The translations under genes were made by a program, and so were the position numbers. Positions 20,711-35,933 of a DNA stretch of 64,000 bases are shown in pieces (within the stretch, counting starts at the first letter, position 1; each line of letters opens with the position of its first letter). Below the pieces are notes generated by a model, which saw nothing but the letters and a program-made list of their open reading frames with translations, made no database searches and was not told the DNA's origin. This DNA comes from Natronoarchaeum mannanilyticum (GTDB lineage Archaea > Halobacteriota > Halobacteria > Halobacteriales > Natronoarchaeaceae), in assembly GCF_039522665.1 (NCBI RefSeq), contig NZ_BAAADV010000001.1, positions 682,001-746,000 of the forward strand, in the 5' to 3' direction.

Positions 20711-20914
20711 CCCGCCGTGGCGGCATCCGTTTCGAGGGCCTGCGGGCGATTGGTTCACTCGGTTCGAGGTTCTGGTTTGGGCGTGGTCGGGACGGGATTG
20801 CTTCTAGGAACTGGTGGAACTGGGACGGACGGAAACACCTCGAAAGCCCTCGGCCCGCCCCTAGCAGTGACGGCAGTTCAGACCAACGGGAACACATCGA
20901 AAGCCCTCGGCCCG

Positions 20915-20977
20915 GTCGCGGCGTCTGCGGAAGATCTCCTCGTTTCGCTCGGATAGTGCCACCGCAGACGCCGCGAC
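20915..20977 (+). repeat. 16-bp perfect helix of copy A
   Basis: Arms 20915-20930 and 20962-20977 pair perfectly and extend to 18 bp with the flanking CG bases. The 31-base loop contains a CTCGTTTCGCTCGGATAG segment that is conserved in copy B although the arms there are entirely different in sequence. Confidence 0.85.
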
Positions 20978-21344
20978 CGAGCCTCGCCCTTTCAGTCCGC
21001 CGGAAGACTCGCTACGCTCGTCTTCCGAGCCCTACCTCGCTGCGCTCGGCAGGACGCCAGGAACAGCAGTGCGCGGGTCGCCTAGGGGCGACCACGCGCG
21101 CCCCGGCCCTCCCCCGTCGTCCGCACGAGCAAAGCGAGTGCAGGCTCGGAAGAGCGAAGCTCTTCCGGCGGCGCGACACGGGGTCGCGCCGGGCCGCGCG
21201 GTTGCGGTGGCGCGCGCTGTCGAGTCCTTGTGACGAGACAGCGTCGCGCGAGGGACGGCGCCGGAGGCGCCGAGGCTGGGGAGGATGAGGCTGCGGTTGG
21301 GTGGGAATGAAAGGGGCCGCCGCGCCCGATCCGGTGAGGTCGTT

Positions 21345-21404
21345 CGAAAGGCGGCGCGGAGCGCCGCCTTTCGTGATGACGAGAGACGCCTTTGGCGTCT
21401 CTCG
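21345..21404 (+). repeat. double hairpin joined by TGATGA
   Basis: The first hairpin has 13-bp arms CGAAAGGCGGCGC and its complement with loop GGA (21345-21373). The second has 11-bp arms CGAGAGACGCC and its complement with loop TTT (21380-21404). The same pair exists at 35236-35291 with different arm sequences, and there it runs opposite to the rest of the element. Confidence 0.85.
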
Positions 21405-21661
21405 GACCACGACGCAAGCACCGCAGCGACCGACGGGAGCGAGGAGCACAGCGAGCCGTAACCGGTCGAGCGTGGCGGGGGCTTTCAGAGCGTCGTGAGT
21501 AACTGCTACTGTTCCAGAGAGCGCGGCGGGAATTCTCAGGACAGTATCGACCCTGTCCGGTACTCCGGATCCAGAGAACCCACGAGAAAACGAGCGATCG
21601 AGACGAACTCTCTCTGATCGAACCCGACACGTCCTTACCCCCGCCGCGCGTCCCGCCCGAC

Positions 21662-34493: not shown

Positions 34494-35111
34494 ATGTTCG
34501 AAAACCGCCCGAACTGCTCCGACGAGGTGATTCTGGTCGGGCGCTCCAACGTCGGGAAGTCGACGATCATGCGGGAGCTGACGGGCCACAGCTTCGAGAC
34601 CGGCGGGAAGCCGGGGGTGACCCGCTCGCCCAACCACTACGACTGGTCCGGCGACGACTTCATGATCACCGACCTGCCCGGCTTCGGGTTCATGTCCGGC
34701 GTCCCCGACGACGTCCGCGAGCAGATCAAGACCGACATCGTCCGCTACATCGAGGAGTACGCCGACAACATCCTCGCGGGCGTGCTGGTGCTCGACGGGA
34801 AGTCGGCCGTGGACATCATCGACCGCCACTCCGGCGAGGACGAGATCCCCCACGACGTCGAGATGTTTCACTTCCTGCGCGACGTCGGCGTCCCGACCGT
34901 CGTGGCGGTCAACAAGATGGACAAGGTCGACGACGAGGACGAGCGCCTGAACGACATCTGCGACCGGCTGGGGCTGTACCCGCCGTGGAAGCAGTGGCAG
35001 GACACGATCGCGCCGATCACCGCCAAGCGCGGGTCGATCGGACCGATGGAGGAGGCGATCCGCGGACATCTGGAGGACGCGAAGCGGGACGACCTGAAGA
35101 AGTTCTTCTAG
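34494..35111 (+). CDS. engB: GTP-binding protein EngB
   Basis: A 205-residue GTPase of the EngB/YihA class. G1 GRSNVGKST is at 16-24, the switch segment is [14 protein letters not shown]3 is DLPGFGF and G4 is NKMD. In bacteria EngB helps 50S subunit assembly; the archaeal role is inferred to be similar. Its 3' end lies 29 bases before hairpin element B. Confidence 0.92.
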
Positions 35112-35235
35112 CGGTTGTTACCGCCTCGAAATTTCCCAACGCTCTCTCTGGAACAGCAGCGGTTACTAACGCCCTGAAAGCCCCCGCCGCGCTCGACCGG
35201 TTGCGGCTCGCTGCGCTCCTCGCTTCGCTGTCGTT

Positions 35236-35291
35236 CGAAAGAGCGCGAAGCGCTCTTTCGTGATGACGAAAGACGCCTACGGCGTCTTTCG
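35236..35291 (+). repeat. double hairpin of copy B, flipped within the element
   Basis: Hairpins 35236-35260 (11-bp arms, loop GAA) and 35267-35291 (11-bp arms, loop TAC) are joined by TGATGA on the + strand. Copy A also has TGATGA on +, although the two elements lie on opposite strands, so this module is inverted relative to its surroundings. Confidence 0.85.
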
Positions 35292-35397
35292 AACCACGGT
35301 GCTTACCTCGCCTCACCGGGTCGAGCACGCCGAAAGAGCACGCTCTTTCGAGCCTGTGCTCGCTTCGCTCGCACAGACGACGGCCCCTTTCATTCCC

Positions 35398-35455
35398 GAA
35401 AGACGCCTGACGGCGTCTTTCGACCCTCGCGAACCCTTCGGGTTCGCTCAGTCCC
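35398..35455. repeat. 58-bp two-hairpin insertion specific to copy B
   Basis: Where copy A (reverse complement) reads CATTCCCACCC, copy B has CATTCCC, then two hairpins (most of 35397-35422, CGAAAGACGCC arms; 35429-35447, GCGAACCC arms), then CCCACCC. The three-base CCC is repeated on both sides of the insert. Confidence 0.75.
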
Positions 35456-35933
35456 ACCCAACCACAACCTCGTCCTCCCCAGCCGATTCGTTCGGTCGCT
35501 ACGCTCCCTCACTCGTCGATCGCGCACTGCTGTCTCGCCATGAAGGCTCGACAGCGCGCGCCACCGCAACCGTACGGCCCGGCGCGCCCCTGTGGCGCGC
35601 CGCCGGAAGAGCTTCGCTCTTCCGAGCCCGCACTCGCTTTGCTCGTGCGGACGACGGGGGAGGGCCGGGCCGCGCGTGGTCGCCGTTAGGCGACCCGCGC
35701 ACTGCGGTCGCGGTTTCCTTGGCGGACTGAAAGGGCGAGGGCCGGTGGCCGGTTCTCACGCGGCCCTATCCGAACGCAGTGAGGATATCCGCGCGAGAAC
35801 CGGCGAGCGGGCCGAGGGCTTTCGTGGTGTTCCAAGCGGTCCCTGCTGCCACCGTTGCTAGGAGCGGGCCGAGGGCTTCGTGGTGGTATCCTGACCATCA
35901 TCAGCAAGAACCGAAGGAGTCGCGCGAACCGGA

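What the first reader, a model, noticed from the sequence alone, without database searches (positions are those of the whole stretch)
20831..21522. Large hairpin-rich non-coding element with covarying stems: candidate structured RNA
This gene-free 0.7-kb element is matched along its length by 35141-35890 on the other strand. Single-stranded blocks are conserved while stems change and still pair. The 16-bp helix 20915-20930/20962-20977 is wholly different in sequence at 35748-35763/35789-35804, yet both pair, the latter with one G-U on the minus strand only. The helix 21170-21190 has A-T where copy B has C-G, and the helix 21216-21242 has T-A where copy B has C-G, flanking a conserved GA/GA internal loop (TC/TC on the other strand). 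Paired changes, G-U tolerance and a strand-specific tandem GA argue for RNA transcribed from + in copy A and - in copy B.
Basis: seen in the sequence. Interest (0 to 1): 0.88.

Follow-up and report, generated by a model that had tools for sequence, protein, structure and literature searches.

The report
Haloarchaeal hairpin elements with rewritten stems
The two 0.7-kb stretches are members of an uncatalogued family of gene-free DNA elements, scattered in a few to about 100 hairpin modules through most salt-loving archaea, whose hairpin stems change completely yet stay perfectly paired; they behave like mobile or recombining hairpin elements rather than two copies of one RNA gene.

Summary
In detail: both copies exist, the stems pair and the changes are compensated, far beyond chance (0 of 500 shuffles). 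But this is not two copies of one RNA. Each copy is two inverted copies of a ~100-120-nt hairpin module ('E': GAAAGCCCC-stem-conserved loop-stem-CCCCTTTCAGTCC) around an inner domain. A covariance model of E finds about 50 modules in this genome, up to 107 in others, in 113 of 146 sampled genomes of the order, and none outside it in a phylum-wide sample. No Rfam family matches. Sites are lineage-specific: both window sites and two tested elsewhere are empty in relatives. At eight sites shared by two sister species, flanking genes are 88-95% identical but most stems have been replaced and remain paired. Wobble pairs favour the strand whose 3' end is the outer edge, in left and right modules alike (33:7, P = 4e-5), so the two modules are 'read' on opposite strands, contradicting a single + strand transcript. 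Best reading: a non-autonomous, mobile or recombining DNA element family recognised as folded single-strand hairpins. The enzyme is unknown; an outward-read ncRNA remains the main rival.

The parts
20785..20898 (+). Copy A, left outer degenerate 54-57-bp units (one clear unit 20842-20898, an older one about 20785-20841)
   Evidence: GAAAGCCCTCGGCC motif at 20842 and 20899, spacing 57; the same arrays occur in other copies and genomes
20899..20998 (+).
   Evidence: CM R1, 47.3 bits, E 3.2e-9; folds with GAAAG/CTTTC closing helix
21002..21055 (+). 54-nt double hairpin GGAAGACTCGCT..GGCAGGAC just inside the left E
   Evidence: 8 copies in this genome; those read lie just inside a left E
21071..21099 (+). 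Inner hairpin hA (GCGCGGGTCGCC..GGCGACCACGCGC)
   Evidence: conserved in 15 genomic copies, all but one cell WC-paired
21170..21190 (+). Inner hairpin hB; covaries (CGAC/GTCG, CAGC/GCTG, TGCGCC/GGCGCA among copies)
   Evidence: 16 genomic copies listed; 14 fully complementary
21210..21251 (+). M2 hairpin with conserved tandem GA/GA internal loop
   Evidence: counterpart found 5' of E (G-strand) in G039 and next to E in G032
21304..21486 (-). Copy A, right E module (inverted; its G-strand is +), with nested small hairpins (21345-21373 and about 21376-21403) inserted in its loop
   Evidence: CM R1, 56.1 bits, E 2.4e-11
21487..21540 (+). Copy A, right outer degenerate unit, inverted relative to the left units
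   Evidence: alignment of 20 copies
35125..35175 (-). Copy B, right outer degenerate unit, reaching to the stop codon of the gene ending at 35111
35176..35354 (+). Copy B, right E module (inverted), with nested CGAAAG..CTTTCG hairpins 35236-35260, 35267-35291 and 35331-35350
   Evidence: CM R1, 60.6 bits, E 2e-12
35520..35561 (-). Copy B M2 tandem-GA hairpin
35581..35601 (-). Copy B hairpin hB
35672..35700 (-). Copy B hairpin hA
35724..35823 (-). Copy B, left E module (short-loop variant), stem wholly different from copy A
   Evidence: CM R1, 35.6 bits, E 2.2e-6
35824..35890 (-). Copy B, left outer unit
   Evidence: CGAAGCCCTCGGCC at 35867-35880, 57 bp from the inner motif

Best explanation
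The stretch is one copy of a non-autonomous, gene-free, mobile or recombining DNA element family of the Halobacteria order. Its core is a ~100-120-nt hairpin module (E) with a lineage-specific closing helix, a free-to-vary stem and a conserved internal loop. Elements occur as inverted pairs E..E' (compact ~250 bp, or long ~450-750 bp as in the window) or as a half-element E+M2. Shown: distribution, copy number, modular make-up, lineage-specific occupation of sites, covariation, whole-stem turnover, strand asymmetry. Inferred: at each end the strand whose 3' terminus is the outer edge folds into the E hairpin and is recognised by a structure- and loop-specific factor acting in trans, as in elements mobilised through folded single-stranded ends. 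Stem sequence is then free, and new stems arrive by exchange between copies or by re-insertion, with arm-to-arm correction or selection keeping them complementary. The 54-57-bp decaying units outside are inferred to be remnants of earlier ends or tandem duplications at the junction.
For: About 50 E modules in this genome and 41, 40, 94 and 107 in four others; 113 of 146 order genomes positive, none outside the order in the phylum sample. Empty sites: copy A in two same-family genomes and copy B in one; a Halobacterium locus present only in sister species G033 and G059 and absent from the others read, several with a ~64-bp gap; a g7 locus occupied in G039 and G158, with a different element in G150, empty in about 20 genomes read. 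Intergenic in every gene orientation. Orthologous pairs show replaced stems, one inverted loop (L180) and one chimeric module (L181). Wobble asymmetry intrinsic to the module. Lineage-specific closing helix: CAAAG/CTTTG in 21 of 21 modules of G039.
Against: No transposase or autonomous parent was found; genes between three wide E(+)/E(-) pairs were ordinary. No target-site duplication or clean junction could be defined, because intergenic DNA is too diverged between species. Eight of 13 sites examined in one species are shared with its sister, so hopping is slow. An absent element could also be a deletion. Conserved loops and tandem GA would fit an RNA equally well.
Confidence: 0.5

Rival explanations
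1. Dispersed structured non-coding RNA family: M2-linker-E is transcribed on the G-strand (outward in paired elements) and ends at GGGGCUUUC; copies spread by duplication.
For: Strong covariation; wobble bias to one module strand; conserved tandem GA and asymmetric internal loop; CTTATAAAC just upstream of M2 in two loci (L018 by sequence, L147).
Against: The inspected long elements and compact pairs show no TATA-like sequence upstream on the G-strand, and the half-element flank consensus is not a clear promoter. Sites differ between species. Wobbles are scarce (about 3% of cells) for an RNA that replaces whole stems. No expression data were available.
Confidence: 0.27
2. Resident DNA element acting as cruciform or hairpin (recombination, supercoil sink, protein-binding site), homogenised by gene conversion and moved only by rearrangement.
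For: Scarce wobbles, near-perfect stems, modules exchanged between loci, a loop inversion; outer units contain palindromic CTGTTTATAAACAG in one genome.
Against: Strand asymmetry is not expected of a symmetric cruciform; copy number ranges from 0 to 107.
Confidence: 0.13
3. Conjugation or single-strand-DNA control element, analogous to ssDNA promoters or initiation sites upstream of ssb on conjugative plasmids (analogy from own knowledge).
For: A single E lies at a fixed place upstream of a structured leader and an OB-fold gene on plasmids of several genera.
Against: Most copies are chromosomal, intergenic and not near such genes.
Confidence: 0.05

Closest known systems
Short mobile repeats (SMR) of Haloquadratum walsbyi (PMC3119063)
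   Same: About 110 bp, prominent inverted repeats unrelated to known transposons, no reported target duplications, up to 54 copies, mobilisation unknown, nested into palindromes of other elements
   Different: SMR copies of one type are commonly >95% identical; E stems differ between copies and E is usually built into larger paired or half elements. Sequence identity to the HqIRS families was not tested
MITEs
   Same: Short, gene-free, inverted ends, many copies, lineage-specific sites
   Different: No parent transposon, no target duplication found; the ends are structured hairpins with conserved loops
PATEs / IS200-IS605 ends
   Same: Near-terminal hairpins, high heterogeneity between copies, common in haloarchaea
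   Different: PATEs lack inverted terminal repeats; E pairs are inverted; no TnpA or TnpB link seen
Integron attC sites (from own knowledge)
   Same: Folded single strand recognised by structure with variable stem and conserved ends
   Different: No integrase, no cassette array; analogy of working only
Large ornate RNAs such as GOLLD, ROOL, OLE
   Same: Large covarying non-coding structure
   Different: Those are defined RNA genes; E is a multi-copy dispersed module with no Rfam match

Membership tests
Structured non-coding RNA class | Helices with compensatory changes above chance | tested here: met
   23 of 28 pairs; 0/500 shuffles; slides fall to 35-44% paired
Structured non-coding RNA class | Match to a described family | tested here: not met
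   No Rfam 15 family at gathering score; weak chance hits only
Structured non-coding RNA class | One consistent transcribed strand over the whole element | tested here: not met
   Wobble bias lies on opposite DNA strands for left and right modules
Structured non-coding RNA class | Stable transcript | not testable with these tools
   No expression data
MITE | Short, gene-free, multi-copy | tested here: met
MITE | Terminal inverted repeats | tested here: met
   E and inverted E' in paired forms; half elements in G039 lack the second E
MITE | Target-site duplication | tested here: inconclusive
   Empty sites found but intergenic DNA too diverged to define junctions
MITE | Parent transposon with the same ends | tested here: inconclusive
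   None found between three wide pairs; no exhaustive search
PATE | No inverted terminal repeats, palindromes near the ends | tested here: not met
   Ends are inverted repeats; definition from PMC3119063
Short mobile repeat (SMR) | About 110 bp with inverted repeats unrelated to transposons, dispersed | tested here: inconclusive
   E is 100-121 bp without inserts and dispersed; lack of a transposon relation only partly tested
Short mobile repeat (SMR) | Sequence relation to HqIRS40-43 or HqIRS55 | not tested

The most novel reading that the evidence does not exclude
An order-wide family of hairpin elements in haloarchaea whose stems are rewritten wholesale within one species divergence while staying complementary, implying either structure-only recognition of a single strand by an unknown mobilising enzyme or an arm-to-arm copying mechanism acting on hairpins.
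Probability: 0.4. Interest if true: 0.85.

Novelty: new variant of a known kind. Interest (0 to 1): 0.7.

Why it matters
Up to about 100 such modules sit in the intergenic DNA of most sampled haloarchaea, without a family model and mostly unannotated in the plasmid records checked. They give a natural series of hairpins with free stems and fixed loops, which makes single-strand recognition, hairpin stability and arm correction in archaea directly testable. They also warn that compensatory changes plus occasional G-U pairs do not by themselves prove an RNA.

Tried and rejected
Rfam at gathering and loose thresholds: chance hits only. Long-range closing helix between left GAAAGCCC and right GGGGCTTTC: rejected as the main structure, because the two modules of a pair carry unrelated stems and can carry different closing helices. 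PATE: rejected on inverted ends. Composite elements with cargo: genes between the three wide pairs are ordinary. Phages: no match. Exact-pattern scan of genome contigs: only unrelated chance matches. 54-nt double hairpin as an independently mobile module: not supported in this genome, where the copies read lie at one place of the element. Consistent promoter upstream of half-elements: not convincing. Literature searches found no description of this family; subscription papers were not covered.

Full report
OBSERVATION. Copy A (window 20785-21540) and copy B (35125-35890, other strand) are as described. They lie in gene-free intervals, match along their length, and the named helices pair in both with different sequence. 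The genome holds about 25 related places (77 pieces), so the pair in the window is a sample of a repeat family.

ANATOMY. Aligning 20 genomic copies and plasmid relatives shows two inverted copies of one module, E: GAAAGCCCC, a stem, a conserved internal loop around CTCGCTGCGCTCCTCG and GGTGCTTGCG, the other arm, then CCCCTTTCAGTCC. In the window the left E has a shorter loop. Between them lie hairpins hA and hB and M2, which has a tandem GA/GA loop. Outside both ends are 54-57-bp degenerate units, inverted left against right and decaying outward; L006 has four left units. Other genomes show other arrangements: compact E-spacer-E' in Halobacterium sp. DL1 (G033, recognised by coordinates identical to a named plasmid hit), long pairs in G032, half-elements E+M2 in G039. 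Nested CGAAAG..CTTTCG hairpins sit in the E loop in G000, G033 and G032.

DISTRIBUTION. A covariance model of 31 E modules finds about 50 in G000, 41 and 40 in two Halobacterium species, 94 in G039 and 107 in G032. In an even sample of the order 113 of 146 genomes are positive; in a phylum-wide sample 29 of 197 are, and every positive belongs to the order.

STRUCTURE STATISTICS. On 31 sequences 93.0% of cells pair (shuffled 77.5%), 23 of 28 pairs have changes on both sides, 115 cells change on both sides, and no shuffle reaches any measure. Relatedness inflates such shuffles, but the slid controls fall to 35-44%. The closing helix changes as a unit: GAAAG/CTTTC, CAAAG/CTTTG in all 21 modules of G039, GGAAG/CTTCC in 16 of 23 in G032, also GCAAG/CTTGC and CGAAG/CTTCG.

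STRAND. In the stems, mismatches that would be wobbles on the G-strand (5' GGACTGAAAGGGG..GGGGCTTTC 3') outnumber those on the C-strand 44 to 7 in the outer 14 pairs, or 33 to 7 after collapsing shared contexts (P = 4e-5). The bias holds for right modules (13:1) and left modules (5:0) of G000 (copy B's left module, with one opposite case, was not in that set). Since the two are inverted, the favoured strand is the one whose 3' end is the outer edge at both ends. One transcript cannot supply both.

EVOLUTION. The site of copy A is empty in G003 and G005, and that of copy B is a 12-bp gap in G003. A Halobacterium locus is occupied only in sisters G033 and G059 among the genomes read. A locus in g7 is occupied in G039 and G158, carries a different element in G150, and is empty in most others. 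G033 and G059 share eight occupied sites with flanking genes 88-95% identical, but the compared stretches are 52-81% identical and most stems differ while pairing. L180 has a loop inverted relative to its ends, and L181 joins the arm of one module to the arm of another. Stems therefore change by exchange or replacement rather than only by point compensation.

CONTEXT. Elements lie between divergent, tandem and convergent genes alike; only the half-elements of G039 favour the 3' side of genes (16 of 20). Genes between wide E pairs are ordinary. On plasmids of several genera a single E has a fixed place before a structured leader and an OB-fold gene, which hints at single-stranded DNA biology.

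READING. The simplest account is a non-autonomous element family whose ends are recognised as folded single strands, with sequence-free stems. The mobilising enzyme, junctions and any RNA are not shown. A G-strand RNA is the main rival and needs expression data.

Noticed in passing
L040, L041, L042, L045, L047, L172 (plasmids of several haloarchaeal genera): A single E module lies at a fixed distance before a conserved ~500-nt hairpin-rich leader and an OB-fold (SSB/RPA-like) gene, in several cases on plasmids typed MPF_T.
   Followed up: partly
window 20785-20898 and 21487-21540; L006 about 1397-1612: Degenerate tandem units of 54-57 bp outside both ends, inverted left against right, decaying outward; L006 has four on the left.
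   Followed up: partly
L180 895-1001; L181 790-1015: An E module whose loop is inverted relative to its ends, and a chimeric module with arms from two different modules.
   Followed up: partly
window 21345-21403, 35236-35291; L106 1349-1516; L062 4576-4750: Paired small hairpins CGAAAG..CTTTCG inserted at the same point of the E loop in three genera.
   Followed up: no
L044 372-482; L112 1208-1383: Modules with the same ends (GAAAGCCCC or GAAAGCCCT .. CCCTTTCA) but a different inner domain.
   Followed up: no
L147 (G150): Outer units of this copy carry repeated TTTATAA, one as the palindrome CTGTTTATAAACAG.
   Followed up: no
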